From Hyphomicrobiales bacterium (GTDB lineage Bacteria; Pseudomonadota; Alphaproteobacteria; Rhizobiales; Rhizobiaceae), in the NCBI GenBank assembly GCA_900466475.1, contig UBMI01000019.1, positions 136,664 to 200,663 of the forward strand: 64,000 nt of DNA, in the 5' to 3' direction. The position numbers were made by a program, and so were the translations under genes. The notes below the pieces were generated by a model. It saw only the letters and a program-made list of their open reading frames with translations, searched no databases and was not told the origin of the DNA. Below are positions 3,334 to 24,612 of the stretch, piece by piece (within the stretch, counting starts at the first letter, position 1; each line of letters starts with the position of its first letter).

Positions 3334-3946
3334 GTCTGACCCCTTTAAATTGATGGAAATAAAACGCCGCATGGAATCAGGCGGCAACAAGGATTAGTTG
3401 CTTTTCTACGTTTCCGTACCGTACCTGCTGAATGCGGAAAATAGTAATTTCTGGCGGGTTGGAAATGAGAGTAGGCTGATCGCAACTTACGGACAATTCA
3501 CAAAGCTAATATAAATCAATATGTTAAATTCTTATCCATTGCCGCCGGCAATCGGGCGGATGGCGTGAGGCGGGGACGAAAGCACCGCGTTCAGTGAGGC
3601 TGAAAGCATCTACCTAAGCGAGAATAAAACAATCGGGCATGGCGTTTGCCGTCGATAGTCATGCCCCTGTATATCTAGGGTGCAGTTGGTGACCCCTTGC
3701 GGGCGTGGTGTCGCGATGCAGCTGGTGTGACCGGCGATCCTGCTGAACGCATCGCTGTGACCGGCAAAGGAAAGGTCCCTCCGCCGGCTTTCTGTCGGCC
3801 GGGCGCATTCCGCTGCGCGCTGCCCATCTCCCATCCGGATGGTGCTTTCAGGTTCCGTCATCGCGCTCTCTTCCATCGCGCTGTTGCGGTGACCCCGATC
3901 CGGCGATCTGCGGCAGCAGTTTACACGGTCAGGACACTGCCGATCC
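3334..3946. other. Intergenic region upstream of the autotransporter
   Basis: About 610 bases without a convincing gene. The first 230 bases are AT-rich for this genome and probably hold the autotransporter promoter on the minus strand. The rest contains overlapping short ORFs on both strands (for example 3610-3969 minus and 3697-3987 plus) whose translations are rich in Arg, Pro and Cys and match no family I know. I treat them as chance ORFs. Confidence 0.5.
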
Positions 3947-20801: not shown

Positions 20802-20948
20802 GCGCGCATTCGATAGTGAAAAGGACGGGTATCGGGGCAAGGCAGACGCTGTTCGTCGCCGTGCGCCGGCCGCTTTTGCGCGTGCCGCTTTGATGGCCGA
20901 TTGACAGACATCACTCCTTGTTCCAGCGCCGTCGACGTATTCATCCTG

Positions 20949-20965
20949 ATATAACGCCGTTGTAT
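20949..20965. promoter_or_regulatory. Inverted repeat upstream of the FecCD-type transport operon
   Basis: ATATAACG-C-CGTTGTAT is an inverted repeat with one mismatch, 46 bases before the operon. The half-site ATATAACG resembles half-sites of ModE-type molybdate operators, though the arm order differs from the E. coli site. Tentative. Confidence 0.35.
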
Positions 20966-21010
20966 ACGGCCGAATATCATGCTAGCGGTCGGCTCCATCC
21001 TTGAGGACCC

Positions 21011-22075
21011 ATGCCCATGATCGCCCGTCTCGCTTTCGTTGCGAAAATCGCCATTGCTATCAGTGGTTTATTGTTGTCTGCCCCTGCCTGGGCCGACCGT
21101 CTGGTTACCGATCAGATCGGCCGACAGGTGCACATTCCGGATGTCGTCAGCCGTGTCGTCATCCTACAGCACCAGACGCTCAATATCGCCGTGCAGATGG
21201 ATGCGATGGACAAGGTGGTCGGTGTACTCGACGAGTGGAAGAAGCAGCTCGGCGCCAATTATGTGCGTCTCGCACCACAGCTTCCGAACCTTGCAATGCC
21301 GGGTGGCCTCACCAAGGTCAATATCGAGGAATTGCTGAAGCTGAAGCCGGATGTGGTGTTCGTCACCAACTACGCGCCGGCCGACATGGTCAAGCAGATC
21401 GAAGATGCCGGGCTCGCCGTCGTCGCCATCTCGCTGCTCGACGTGCCGCCGGCGGAAGCCGTCAAGCTCAATCCGAGCGTCAAGGACGAGCCGGCTGCCA
21501 TCGACGCTGGTTTCGCGACCGGCGTGCGGCTGATCGCCGACGTGCTTGACCGCAAGGAAAAGGGCGAAGAGATGATCGCGGCCACCAAGAAGACCCGCAA
21601 GCTCGTTGCCGACCGGCTCGCCGACATCCCGGAAGACAAGCGCGTCGCCACCTACATGGCCAATCCGGACCTCTCCACCTATGGCCGCGGCAAATATACC
21701 GGCCTGATGATGGAGCGCGCCGGCGCCCGCAACGTTGCGAACTCGATCGCCGGTTTCAAGCAGGTGTCGATGGAAGACGTCCTGACATGGAACCCGGCCG
21801 TCATCTTCGTCCAGGAGCGTTATCCGGCTGTCGTCGACGAGATCAGGAAGGCCGATTCCTGGCATACGATCGATGCCGTCAAGAACGGCAAGGTCTACCT
21901 GATGCCGGAATATGCCAAGGCCTGGGGCTATCCGATGCCGGAAGCGATGGCGCTCGGTGAACTCTGGATGGCGAAGGAGCTTTATCCCGAGCGGTTCAAG
22001 GATATCGACATGCAGAAGGAAGCGGATGCCTATTACAAGGAGTTCTACCGCACCGACTATCGCCCTGCGCAATGA
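21011..22075 (+). CDS. ABC transporter periplasmic binding protein (FhuD/TroA-like)
   Basis: A 354-residue binding protein with a signal peptide ending SAPAWADR. The mature part has the two-lobed Peripla_BP_2 fold used for metal-chelate, cobalamin and some oxyanion uptake: LVTDQIGRQVHIP at the N-terminus, then NIEELLKLKPDVVFV, and a C-terminal AGARNVANSI and MPEYAKAWGYPMPEA. The ATG at 21017 is better spaced from GAGGA than the one at 21011; both give the same signal peptide. It is the first gene of an operon whose next gene overlaps by 4 bases (ATGA). Ligand is unknown; a ModA-like protein in the same operon hints at molybdate or tungstate. Confidence 0.87.
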   Translation: MPMIARLAFVAKIAIAISGLLLSAPAWADRLVTDQIGRQVHIPDVVSRVVILQHQTLNIAVQMDAMDKVVGVLDEWKKQLGANYVRLAPQLPNLAMPGGLTKVNIEELLKLKPDVVFVTNYAPADMVKQIEDAGLAVVAISLLDVPPAEAVKLNPSVKDEPAAIDAGFATGVRLIADVLDRKEKGEEMIAATKKTRKLVADRLADIPEDKRVATYMANPDLSTYGRGKYTGLMMERAGARNVANSIAGFKQVSMEDVLTWNPAVIFVQERYPAVVDEIRKADSWHTIDAVKNGKVYLMPEYAKAWGYPMPEAMALGELWMAKELYPERFKDIDMQKEADAYYKEFYRTDYRPAQ

Positions 22076-23106
22076 ATGACGACGTCTTCCCGCGACGCCC
22101 GCCATCGGTGATCATCGCCATACTGGCGGTCACTCTGGCGCTCGTCGCGGTCGCTTCCCTTGGCATAGGCCGTTACGACATTCCGTTCGCACGGGTAATC
22201 GAGATCCTCTGGGCGCCGATTTCGCCACCGGACGTGCCGGTAACGCCGACCGAGGCGAACGTCGTCTTCACGGTGCGCATGCCGCGCATCCTGCTGGCGC
22301 TTCTGGCCGGCGCGGGTCTCGCACTCTCCGGCGCCACGATGCAGGGCGTGTTCCGCAATCCGCTCGTGGGGCCGCAGGTGATGGGCGTCTCCTCGGGCGC
22401 TGCCTTCGGTGGTGTGCTCGCCATCCTCTTTAGCTTTCCGCGTTACGGGCTGCTTGGCTCGGCCTTCGTCTTCGGGCTTTCGGCTCTGGTTCTGGTCTAC
22501 GCGCTGAACGGCATCGTCGCGCGCCGCAACATCCTGGCGCTGGTACTGGCCGGTGTCGTCGTCACCGGCTTCTTCGGTGCGCTCGTCAGCCTTGTCCAGT
22601 ATCTGGCCGATACGGAGGACAAGCTGCCGGCCATGGTCTTCTGGCTGCTCGGCAGTTTCGCCACCGCCAATTGGGAAAAGTTCCTGCTGATCGCCGCACC
22701 GGTACTGATCTGCAGCTTTCTGCTGCTCGGCCTGCGCTGGCGCATCAATCTGCTCTCCATCGGCGACGAGGATGCCCGCGCCCTCGGCGTCAATGTCGAG
22801 CCGCTCCGTTGGCTGATCCTGATCCTCGTCTCCTGCATCGTATCGGCGCAGGTGGCCGTCAGCGGCGCTATCGGCTGGGTCGGGCTGGTCGTGCCGCATA
22901 TGGCGCGCATGCTAGTCGGCCCCGATCACCGGGTGATGATGCCGGCCTCGTTAATCATCGGCGCGCTCTACCTGCTGATAATCGATACCGTCGCCCGCAC
23001 TGCCACAGCCACGGAAATCCCGCTCGGTATCCTGACCGCGCTGATCGGCACGCCGGTCTTCGCGCTGGTGTTGAAGCAGACCCAGAGAGGCGCACGTGGA
23101 TTCTGA
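22072..23106 (+). CDS. FecCD family ABC transporter permease
   Basis: The 344-residue protein has the multi-helix pattern of BtuC/FhuB/FecCD-type permeases. Visible family segments are RMPRILLALLAGAGLALSG, FRNPLVGPQVMGVSSGAAFG and VSGAIGWVGLVVPHMAR, the last being the coupling-helix region that meets the ATPase. It overlaps the binding-protein gene by ATGA and the ATPase gene by 11 bases, so the three are translationally coupled. Two copies would form the membrane channel of a type II importer, like MolB2C2 or BtuC2D2. Confidence 0.92.
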   Translation: MNDDVFPRRPPSVIIAILAVTLALVAVASLGIGRYDIPFARVIEILWAPISPPDVPVTPTEANVVFTVRMPRILLALLAGAGLALSGATMQGVFRNPLVGPQVMGVSSGAAFGGVLAILFSFPRYGLLGSAFVFGLSALVLVYALNGIVARRNILALVLAGVVVTGFFGALVSLVQYLADTEDKLPAMVFWLLGSFATANWEKFLLIAAPVLICSFLLLGLRWRINLLSIGDEDARALGVNVEPLRWLILILVSCIVSAQVAVSGAIGWVGLVVPHMARMLVGPDHRVMMPASLIIGALYLLIIDTVARTATATEIPLGILTALIGTPVFALVLKQTQRGARGF

Positions 23107-23884
23107 TCCGGTCATGCTGCGCATCGAGGCCGTCAGCCAGTCCTATGACGGCGAGCACTGGCAGTTCCGCGATCTCGACTTCGACCTGAGGGCAGGTGAG
23201 ATCACCGCTATCCTGGGGCCGAACGGACGCGGAAAATCGACATTGCTGCGGGTTTTGGCAGGACTTCTGAAGCCAACCTCCGGCAGGATGGAACTCAATC
23301 GCGGCACTGGCTTCGTACCGCAGGAATTCATCGGCTCCTTTCCCTATTCGGTGCTGGATGTGGTGCTGATGGGCCGCGCCCGGCATATCGCGGTTTTCCA
23401 GACGCCGCGAAAGCGCGATGTGGAAAAGGCGATGGCGGCACTCAGCGCCACCGGCATGGCCGATTACGCATCGCGCAATATCGAGGCTTTGTCTGGTGGC
23501 GAGCGTCAACTCGTGCTGATTGCCCGCGCGCTTGCGGGTGAGAATGCGGTTCTGTTGCTCGACGAGCCGGCATCCGCGCTCGACCTGAAAAATCAGGATG
23601 TCGTGCTCTCCCTGCTCAGCGAATTGGCCGACCGTGAAAAGCTCGCCATTGCCTTTACTACCCATCAGCCCAACCACGCGGTCGCCGTGGCTGACAAGGT
23701 GCTGCTCATGCTGCCACAGACGAAAACCGTCTTCGGCGCAACCGAAGAGGTGATGACGGAAGCCTATCTGGAAGCGCTTTACGGCATTCCGATCCTGTCC
23801 GCGCGCCTCGGCAGCGGTGAGCGCGAAGAAACCGCTTTCGTGCCGCTCTTCCGGCGAAGAGACCGAAAAGGAGAACGTCGATGA
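23096..23884 (+). CDS. ABC transporter ATP-binding protein
   Basis: A 262-residue ATPase of a FecE/BtuD-type importer. Walker A is G41-P-N-G-R-G-K-S-T, the signature is LSGGERQLVLIARAL and Walker B is VLLLDEPASALDL, followed by a switch His in T-T-H-Q-P-N-H. The GTG at 23096 begins inside the permease gene; an ATG at 23114 is an alternative start. The 3' end overlaps the next gene by ATGA. It energises import of whatever the 21011 protein binds. Confidence 0.92.
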   Translation: MDSDPVMLRIEAVSQSYDGEHWQFRDLDFDLRAGEITAILGPNGRGKSTLLRVLAGLLKPTSGRMELNRGTGFVPQEFIGSFPYSVLDVVLMGRARHIAVFQTPRKRDVEKAMAALSATGMADYASRNIEALSGGERQLVLIARALAGENAVLLLDEPASALDLKNQDVVLSLLSELADREKLAIAFTTHQPNHAVAVADKVLLMLPQTKTVFGATEEVMTEAYLEALYGIPILSARLGSGEREETAFVPLFRRRDRKGERR

Positions 23885-24612
23885 CCCAATCCGTGAAGGT
23901 GCTCTCCGCTGGCAGCATGCGGCATGCATTTCCTGCCATCATTGGCGCTTTCGGGCAGATGACGGGTATCGGGATTTCACTGTCACTCGGGCCTGCCGGC
24001 CTGTTGCGCGAGCGGATCGAGGCAGGCGAAGCATTCCATCTTTTTGCTTCGGCCAATATGGCGCATCCGCGACGTCTCGCTTCCCTCGGCATTACGGAAG
24101 AGCCCATCTGCTTCGCGCGCAATCGGCTTTGCGTGATCGCACGCGCCGATCTCGGCCTCGCGACGGAGAATTTTCTCGACATCCTCTCAGATCCCCAGGT
24201 GAAGATCGGCACATCGACGCCAGGCGACGATCCTTCCGGGGACTATGCTTTCGAGGTTTTCGACCTTGTGGAGGCGAAGCATCCAGGCATGGGCGTCGCG
24301 CTGAAAGCGCGTGCGCGGCAACTGGTCGGCGGCCGCAATTCGCCGCCGACACCGCCCGGCAAGGGCGGCGGTTATCTGATCACTGACGGCGAAGCCGACC
24401 TTTTCCTGGGCTATTATTCCAACGCCCGGCTGCTGGAGGCCGACCCAGCTTTCCGCGCCGTGGAAATCCCGGCGGAATTCTCTCCCAAGGTCGAATATGG
24501 TTTGGGGCTGTGCAAGGGCGCTCCGGATGATGCGAGAGAACTGCGGGATTTTCTCCTGTCGGATCAAGGGCAGGAGATATTGAAAGGAGCAGGCTTTTCG
24601 CGGGTCGGTTAG
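23881..24612 (+). CDS. ModA-like substrate-binding domain protein without signal peptide
   Basis: The 243-residue protein matches the type II periplasmic-binding fold of molybdate-binding ModA. It opens with VKVLSAGSMRHAFPAI, then RERIEAGEAFHLFASANMAHP, and later VKIGTSTPGDDPSGDYAF and ITDGEADLFLGYYSNA. Unlike ModA it has no signal peptide: the fold begins within five residues of the ATG. It therefore appears cytoplasmic. It overlaps the ATPase gene by ATGA and is the last gene of the operon. It might bind the imported oxyanion inside the cell as a sensor, buffer or carrier. A missed upstream start is excluded by the overlap arrangement. Ligand is inferred only from fold. Confidence 0.75.
   Translation: MTQSVKVLSAGSMRHAFPAIIGAFGQMTGIGISLSLGPAGLLRERIEAGEAFHLFASANMAHPRRLASLGITEEPICFARNRLCVIARADLGLATENFLDILSDPQVKIGTSTPGDDPSGDYAFEVFDLVEAKHPGMGVALKARARQLVGGRNSPPTPPGKGGGYLITDGEADLFLGYYSNARLLEADPAFRAVEIPAEFSPKVEYGLGLCKGAPDDARELRDFLLSDQGQEILKGAGFSRVG

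What the first reader, a model, noticed from the sequence alone, without database searches (positions are those of the whole stretch)
21011..24612. FecCD-type importer operon ending with a signal-less ModA-like protein
Three genes form a type II ABC importer (binding protein with signal peptide, FecCD permease, ATPase), all overlapping. A fourth overlapping gene encodes a ModA-fold protein that has no signal peptide, so its ligand site would be cytoplasmic. Known family facts: MolABC of Haemophilus is a FecCD-type molybdate importer, while ModA is normally periplasmic. Inference: an importer combined with an intracellular oxyanion receptor, perhaps a sensor or carrier for molybdate or tungstate.
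Basis: partly seen in the sequence, partly recalled or inferred. Interest (0 to 1): 0.55.

Follow-up and report, generated by a model that had tools for sequence, protein, structure and literature searches.

The report
Molybdate importer operon with cytoplasmic ModA
A Rhizobium operon for importing molybdate (a MolABC importer) ends with a relative of the usual exported molybdate-binding protein that appears to stay inside the cell and has lost one conserved contact residue, a pattern repeated in other alpha- and gammaproteobacteria, which points to an undescribed step in how bacteria handle molybdenum after uptake.

Summary
The first three genes are molABC: each protein's best solved relative, by a wide margin, is H. 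influenzae HI1472 (MolA), HI1471 or HI1470. The fourth, here called modAL, has the ModA fold but no signal peptide; in several relatives an in-frame stop just before the start rules one out.

The arrangement recurs. ModAL lies in the molA cluster in 11 of 12 MolA-bearing genomes of a 398-genome phylum sample and 12 of 12 of a Rhizobium-genus sample, but in only 2 of 5 intact cases in family f191. Five of the first 12 keep molA and modAL without MolBC.

Two new points. (1) The residue aligned with E. coli ModA Ser39, a molybdate contact, is Ala/Val in 41 of 41 clear signal-less proteins analysed, Ser in 14 of 14 exported sisters and 15 of 15 canonical ModAs. (2) ModE-operator-like palindromes precede molA in 41 of 42 loci, and 3 of 5 in a second scan.

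Best reading: a ModE-controlled MolABC importer plus a cytosolic, probably weaker-binding oxyanion acceptor. Location, ligand and role of ModAL are inferred. The transcriptional-sensor idea is not supported.

The parts
20933..20956 (.). predicted ModE operator, upstream copy (CGACGTATTCATCCTGATATAACG)
   Evidence: score 14.6 with a matrix from the E. coli modA operator half-sites only; the threshold alone is not selective (4 hits >=13, at 3 places, in the 64-kb window; 0-4 hits in five shuffled windows); similar copies 75-84 bp upstream of molA in relatives L011, L166, L168, L169
20958..20981 (.). predicted ModE operator next to molA (CGTTGTATACGGCCGAATATCATG)
   Evidence: begins 53 bp upstream of the molA start; the best score (13.9) among the upstream regions of 88 window ORFs of 200 aa or more, next 10.0; conserved in relatives
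21011..22075 (+). molA: periplasmic molybdate-binding protein with signal peptide (354 aa)
   Evidence: Peripla_BP_2; 456 bits, E 7.9e-136 to HI_1472 (3psa/3psh), next best 111 bits
22072..23106 (+). molB: FecCD-type permease (344 aa)
   Evidence: FecCD; 373 bits to HI1471 (2nq2_A), next best 190 bits
23096..23884 (+). molC: ABC ATPase (262 aa), no TOBE domain among its Pfam matches
   Evidence: ABC_tran; 231 bits to HI1470 (2nq2_C), next best 107 bits
23881..24612 (+). modAL: signal-less ModA-fold protein (243 aa), above the cut-off of NCBIfam PRK03537.1-4
23995..23997 (+). codon of modAL Ala39, aligned with E. coli ModA Ser39
   Evidence: A 37 and V 1 of 38 in the signal-less clade, A in 3 of 3 other clear signal-less rows, S in 14 of 14 exported, S in 15 of 15 canonical ModA

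Best explanation
Shown by sequence: the locus is a run of overlapping genes molA-molB-molC-modAL with ModE-operator-like sites in front. Inferred mechanism: when molybdate is scarce, ModE releases the promoter; MolA captures molybdate (or tungstate) in the periplasm, MolBC imports it, and ModAL, an exported ModA-type binding protein recast as a cytosolic one, takes up the incoming oxyanion and holds or passes it on (to Mop, MoeA/MogA or the next user). Loss of the Ser39 hydroxyl would weaken binding, which suits a protein that must release its ligand at cytosolic (micromolar) concentrations. How likely: MolABC importer 0.95; ModAL in the cytoplasm 0.9; ModE control here 0.8; ModAL binds molybdate/tungstate 0.6; acceptor/buffer role 0.4. 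The confidence below is for the whole chain.
For: MolA, MolB and MolC orthology. ModAL fold: Foldseek's first 14 hits and 22 of the 25 best VIA rows are molybdate/tungstate-binding ModA/WtpA or the ModA-type Lmo1041, Z up to 24. Invariant in the 38 signal-less and 14 exported rows alike: A10, G11, S12, S57, D117, P118, G120, D121, Y122, Y178. Signal-less across the group, with in-frame stops 0 to 5 codons before the aligned start in L128, L122, L113, L012, L013, L017. Co-occurrence: 11 of 12 MolA genomes in 398 have ModAL in the molA cluster, and all 11 signal-less members listed there have MolA, against 0 of 6 exported members; Rhizobium genus 12 of 12. ModE-like sites in 41 of 42 loci and in front of the genome's own modA. 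In Salmonella, STM3142 (molA by position and annotation) is in the molybdate iModulon with modABC (PMC9764980, passages). Purifying selection.
Against: No binding or localisation data. Ser39, a direct molybdate contact, is replaced, so ModAL may bind poorly or not at all. Residues 111-120, which hold part of the conserved pocket motif, are modelled with low confidence (mean pLDDT 58). MolABC occurs without ModAL in G559 and in 3 of 5 intact members of family f191, so ModAL is not essential to the importer. molA and modAL occur without a MolB orthologue in G413, G539, G637, G720, G723, and without MolBC in the fetched stretches L129, L173, L174 and L202, which an importer-acceptor model does not explain by itself. 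L020 has modAL but no molABC within its 5-kb flanks; modAL frames look broken in L025 and L026. Signal-less relatives also occur with no MolA in the fetched stretch (L134, L135). STM3141, where Salmonella modAL should lie, is not listed in the iModulon. ModE-like sites are missing or weak in L128, L201, L202.
Confidence: 0.42

Rival explanations
1. ModAL is a cytosolic regulator of the transporter: when loaded with molybdate it docks on MolBC (or a borrowed FecCD importer) and shuts it, replacing the TOBE regulatory domain that ModC-type ATPases carry.
For: No TOBE domain among the Pfam matches of MolC. Rice et al. 2014 (PMC4031551, passages) call regulation of MolBC-A poorly understood and see intracellular molybdate level off near 22 uM.
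Against: molA and modAL occur without a MolB orthologue in five sampled genomes; MolABC occurs without ModAL in several others.
Confidence: 0.18
2. ModAL has left oxyanion binding: signal loss and Ser39 loss mark a switch to another ligand (a cofactor intermediate, for instance) or to a protein-partner role.
For: Ser39 is replaced in 41 of 41 clear signal-less rows and kept in 14 of 14 exported and 15 of 15 canonical ones; three of the 41 rows fall outside the main clade (Paracoccus, Mesorhizobium), so the switch may have recurred. The fold also occurs in proteins crystallised with other ligands (PEB3, AcfC).
Against: Ser12, Tyr178 and the DP.GDY motif are invariant; the gene is tied to MolA and to ModE-type sites. 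Two rows without a clear signal peptide keep Ser39 (L110, L134), so the two losses are not strictly one event.
Confidence: 0.22
3. ModAL is the molybdate sensor of the operon, working with a ModE that cannot bind molybdate itself.
For: The ModE-like protein beside this genome's modABC is 125 aa with only an HTH domain (85.4 bits to TIGR00637, below its cut-off of 98.5); of the genome's 16 TOBE matches the only one beside it lies on the opposite strand, in modC.
Against: 48 of 60 Rhizobium-genus genomes have no MolA at E<=1e-40; whether they control modABC with a short ModE was not tested. Full-length ModE with a TOBE domain in enterobacteria is recalled, and enterobacteria have modAL too.
Confidence: 0.1
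4. ModAL acts in the periplasm after all, exported without a classical signal or read from a mis-annotated start.
For: Its sister group has signal peptides.
Against: In-frame stops 0 to 5 codons before the aligned start in several genomes, and no strongly hydrophobic stretch next to the start in the 32 of the 41 signal-less rows for which this was computed.
Confidence: 0.04

Closest known systems
MolABC of Haemophilus influenzae (HI1472-HI1470) and its neighbour HI1469
   Same: Homologous importer; HI1469, listed as modA, lies at the end of the mol cluster (PMC4031551, PMC3928620, passages); Pasteurella multocida has the order molA-molB-molC-modAL with no room for a signal peptide.
   Different: HI1469 itself was not fetched here and is called modA in print; the passages seen do not comment on its location or pocket.
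Canonical ModA (E. coli, A. vinelandii, P. aeruginosa)
   Same: Fold (Z about 23), Ser12 and the lobe-B Tyr position.
   Different: No signal peptide, Ser39 to Ala, a segment around residues 148-151 (L-V-G-G) that is a gap in all 15 canonical rows, no ModB/ModC partner alongside; about 20% identity.
Exported sister group (NF002918 relatives, some beside TupBCA-like or distant MolA-like importers)
   Same: About 40% identity; shared HP, ST, DP.GDY and GG motifs.
   Different: Signal peptides present, Ser39 kept, no MolA orthologue in the six genomes checked for it.
Cytosolic molybdate binders Mop, ModE, ModG (TOBE fold; recalled)
   Same: The proposed compartment and ligand.
   Different: Unrelated fold; ModAL's only Pfam match is SBP_bac_11.

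Membership tests
MolABC importer | MolA orthologue with signal peptide | tested here: met
   456 bits to HI_1472 over residues 29-352, next best 111; signal peptide read by eye
MolABC importer | MolB and MolC orthologues in the operon | tested here: met
   best solved relatives are 2nq2_A and 2nq2_C by a wide margin
MolABC importer | transports molybdate or tungstate | not testable with these tools
   needs a binding or uptake assay
ModE regulon | ModE-type palindrome in front of the first gene | tested here: met
   window site conserved; 41 of 42 loci at p<=0.015 against 200 shuffles each, rows not independent. Second scan 3 of 5. Same matrix on canonical modA upstreams: 13 of 33 score 12 or more
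ModE regulon | ModE binds the site and represses with molybdate | not testable with these tools
   needs gel shifts and transcripts
ModA (molybdate ABC importer binding protein) | ModA fold and family profile | tested here: met
   TIGR01256 65.5 over 62.5
ModA (molybdate ABC importer binding protein) | exported, signal peptide | tested here: not met
ModA (molybdate ABC importer binding protein) | oxyanion contact Ser12 | tested here: met
   S in 38 of 38, 14 of 14 and 15 of 15 (E. coli numbering and role recalled)
ModA (molybdate ABC importer binding protein) | oxyanion contact Ser/Thr at position 39 | tested here: not met
   A 37, V 1 of 38; the Ser39 role is recalled; the position I take as equivalent, Thr60 of P. 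aeruginosa ModA, is a contact in PMC9171197 (passages)
ModA (molybdate ABC importer binding protein) | genes for ModB and ModC alongside | tested here: not met
   the genome's modA and modC lie on another contig, C13
NCBIfam NF002918 PRK03537.1-4 | score above the curated cut-off | tested here: met
   321.1 against 288; the model's name (ABC substrate-binding protein) is an annotation, not a test

The most novel reading that the evidence does not exclude
Some bacteria run molybdate uptake with a binding protein on each side of the membrane: periplasmic MolA and a cytosolic ModA derivative, translationally coupled in many genomes, whose affinity was lowered by losing Ser39, forming a relay that hands the oxyanion to the cofactor machinery. 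It would be an ABC-importer binding protein converted into an intracellular metal-oxyanion chaperone.
Probability: 0.33. Interest if true: 0.78.

Novelty: new variant of a known kind. Interest (0 to 1): 0.6.

Why it matters
How molybdate travels from the importer to the cofactor enzymes, and how MolABC is regulated, are open: Rice et al. 2014 invoke an 'unknown factor' linking cytosolic molybdate to molABC transcription (passages). The predicted ModE operators are a candidate answer for the regulation, well supported in Rhizobium and enterobacteria and weakest in Pasteurella and family f191. ModAL is a candidate, present from Rhizobium to Pasteurella, for the first cytosolic step. The Ser39-to-Ala change that goes with signal loss gives a one-residue, testable prediction about affinity. 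Databases name these proteins molybdate ABC transporter substrate-binding proteins, which is probably misleading for this group.

Tried and rejected
Considered and dropped: iron, heme or B12 import (FecCD families); none of the 16 NCBIfam models hit by MolB reaches its cut-off and HI1471 is far closer than heme or B12 permeases. Pseudogene: rejected by dN/dS 0.11-0.17, though modAL frames look interrupted in L025 and L026. Link to nitrogen fixation: no nifD match in this genome. A first pocket table contained canonical rows read on the wrong strand; it was replaced, whose 15 canonical rows are E. coli plus the first 14 of 33 loci with a ModA match, cut off by the script. A greedy ORF caller hid genes behind shadow ORFs and was replaced by tblastn. 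The tree does not show one origin for all signal-less proteins: 38 rows form a clade at 92/91, while Paracoccus and Mesorhizobium fall outside; L110 has a very long branch.

Rows left out of the 41: L110 and L134 (no clear signal peptide, Ser39 kept); L025 and L026 (broken frames), L010 and L020 (dropped by me when the set was made), all four Ala at position 39; near-copies L160, L162-L165, L167, L172 and L198, L202, whose printed N-termini all read GPAG. The hydrophobicity measure covers 32 of the 41. In the VIA list sulfate-, iron- and citrate-binding proteins also score Z 18-22, so the fold alone does not fix the ligand. Some molA start positions used in the operator scan are approximate by a few codons. 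In some searches only part of the first-look candidates of some genomes was scored, so a ModAL could have been missed.

Literature: searches showed no title, abstract or passage describing a cytosolic ModA beside MolABC. I saw listings, several of them capped (30 of 52, 15 of 140, 15 of 103, 15 of 16; the word 'mode' made some noisy), and passages of eight papers. Most subscription papers, Tirado-Lee 2011 among them, are not held, so absence from print is not shown.
Full report
Check of the observation. Pfam gives Peripla_BP_2, FecCD, ABC_tran and SBP_bac_11. The fourth protein scores 321.1 bits against NCBIfam NF002918 (cut-off 288) and 65.5 against TIGR01256 modA (cut-off 62.5). It starts MTQSVKVLSAGS with no other start codon back to the preceding in-frame stop, 20 codons upstream.

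What the importer is. The binding protein has 456 bits to HI_1472 (MolA, 3psa/3psh) against 111 for the next solved protein; the permease 373 bits to HI1471 (2nq2_A) against 190; the ATPase 231 bits to HI1470 (2nq2_C) against 107. By sequence this is a MolABC molybdate/tungstate importer, not an iron or heme system. Transport itself was not tested here.

Conservation of the four genes. Of 18 loci of Rhizobium and near relatives fetched by similarity to the fourth protein (L009-L026), 16 have all four genes in the same order; L020 has only modAL within its flanks and L022 lacks molA and most of molB; L025 and L026 have what look like broken modAL frames. In the Rhizobium-genus sample 12 of 60 genomes have MolA at E<=1e-40 and all 12 have molABC followed by ModAL. 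In the phylum sample 12 of 398 have MolA; ModAL is in the same cluster in 11, in line with molABC, convergent to it, or paired with molA alone, the exception being G559. All 11 signal-less members of that sample have MolA; the six exported members have none. In family f191 (chosen through G661; I take it for Pasteurellaceae from genome size, no call names it) 6 of 61 have MolA, one of them broken; of the five intact, two have ModAL in the cluster (L198, L202) and three have molABC without it. Pasteurella multocida carries molA-molB-molC-modAL, and its modAL frame opens only three codons before its ATG.

A pair without a transporter. In G413, G539, G637, G720 and G723 molA and modAL stand together with no MolB orthologue; their best FecCD proteins are 37-42% identical and lie elsewhere, against 52-59% in the six genomes with an adjacent molB. 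The same pair, without MolBC in the fetched stretch, is in Pantoea plasmids, in a Salmonella record directly after hypA-hybG and, by DNA similarity, in 45 of 5426 E. coli genomes; the one I opened has a FecCD transporter (33% to MolB) divergently beside it. In the phylum sample MolA keeps ModAL (11 of 12) more often than MolBC (7 of 12); in f191 it is the reverse (2 against 4 of 5). The orphan pairs are unexplained.

Signal loss and the pocket. In the exported sister group (14 rows) the N-termini carry hydrophobic stretches (11-residue mean 2.1-3.2 in 13 of 14, 1.5 in L027); signal-less rows stay at or below 1.2, except L119 at 1.7, where the stretch lies far upstream of the conserved start (computed for 32 of the 41 signal-less rows). 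In an alignment with 15 canonical ModAs, the column of E. coli Ser39 is Ala in 37 and Val in 1 of 38 rows of the main signal-less clade, Ala in the three other clear signal-less rows (L130, L175, L135), Ser in 14 of 14 exported and 15 of 15 canonical rows. Ser12, Tyr178 and D117, P118, G120, D121, Y122 are invariant in the clade and the exported group. In P. aeruginosa ModA the residue I take as equivalent, Thr60, gives main-chain and side-chain contacts, and Asn33 stands at the Ser12 place (PMC9171197, passages). That paper also reports nanomolar binding with one contact residue fewer than in other ModAs, so a missing contact need not abolish binding. Two rows without a clear signal peptide keep Ser39 (L110, L134). 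The tree puts 38 signal-less rows in one clade (92/91), exported rows as neighbours, canonical ModA apart (100/100).

Structure. AlphaFold from 17 window and relative sequences: mean pLDDT 90, pTM 0.85, but residues 111-120, part of the conserved pocket motif, average 58. Foldseek's first 14 PDB hits are ModA/WtpA proteins or the Listeria ModA-type protein Lmo1041; VIA-align gives Z 24.4 to Lmo1041 and about 23-24 to the best ModAs. Sulfate-binding proteins follow at 22.

Regulation. A matrix built only from the two half-sites of the E. coli modA operator finds a match within 102 bp upstream of molA at p<=0.015 (200 shuffles each) in 41 of 42 loci; the miss is P. multocida. Among the f191 loci scanned later, L199, L200 and the broken L203 have a match (p 0.01-0.02), L201 and L202 do not, and L198 was not scanned. 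The rows are related, so this is not 41 independent events. The score alone is not selective over 64 kb (4 hits in the window, 0-4 in shuffled windows); the argument rests on place and recurrence. As a control, 13 of 33 canonical modA upstream regions score 12 or more. In the window two sites lie in tandem at 20933-20956 and 20958-20981; the nearer one scores highest of 88 window ORF upstreams, and this genome's own modA has a site too. The ModE-like protein next to modABC is 125 aa, HTH only. In Salmonella the molybdate iModulon contains modABC, STM0770, STM0771, STM3142 and yghW (PMC9764980, passages); hyb is STM3150-STM3143 (PMC3940037, passage) and STM3142 is called a periplasmic ferrichrome-binding protein (PMC5183578, passage), the position and kind of molA. 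That identification is inferred, and STM3141 is not listed in the iModulon.

Link to prior work. Rice et al. 2014 (PMC4031551, passages) deleted HI1469-HI1473 as the mol cluster, saw molB repressed 10-fold by molybdate and proposed an 'unknown factor'. ModE is the simplest candidate given the sites above, although the evidence is weakest in Pasteurella and f191, the nearest relatives examined if f191 is that family. PMC3928620 (passages) lists HI1469 as modA and quotes a Kd of about 100 uM for the mol system. My searches (listings and passages only) turned up no description of a cytosolic ModA group.

Mechanism. Shown by sequence: overlapping genes, an importer of the Mol type, a signal-less ModA-fold protein, loss of Ser39, ModE-like sites. 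Inferred: cytosolic location, molybdate or tungstate as ligand, weaker binding, acceptor/buffer role. Rivals (transporter regulator, new ligand, sensor, unconventional export) are listed with tests. The orphan pairs and the ModAL-free MolABC loci fit the favoured model least.

Noticed in passing
L105, L107, L108, L120 (TupA-like tested); L105, L112, L117 (TupB-like tested): Exported NF002918 relatives lie directly after a TupA-like gene (NF041772, 222-248 bits, below its cut-off of 400) in 4 of 4 tested, with a TupB-like permease further upstream in 3 of 3 tested; L105 and L107 also have a distant MolA-like/FecCD/ATPase set downstream.
   Followed up: partly
L133:5123-10373: Indioceanicola plasmid: exported ModA-like gene, a TrmO-type gene, a FecCD importer and, on the other strand, a TOBE-domain gene in one cluster. 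Why a tRNA methyltransferase homologue lies there is unexplained.
   Followed up: no
L135:5746-9940: Mesorhizobium plasmid: TOBE protein and a signal-less ModA-like gene (Ala39) next to a formate dehydrogenase gene, with no MolA found in the fetched 12.7 kb.
   Followed up: partly
L173:822-9697: Salmonella hydrogenase-2 operon flanked by a DUF2623 gene (YghW by recall) and molA-modAL; yghW and STM3142 share the molybdate iModulon in print, suggesting molybdate control around a nickel hydrogenase locus.
   Followed up: no
L203:1610-3948: Family f191 genome G808: mol operon in decay (molA in several frames, molC match short) that still keeps a ModE-like site.
   Followed up: no
window 3342-3366: AT-rich palindrome that scores above the molA site with the ModE matrix (19.1); its gene context was not examined.
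   Followed up: no
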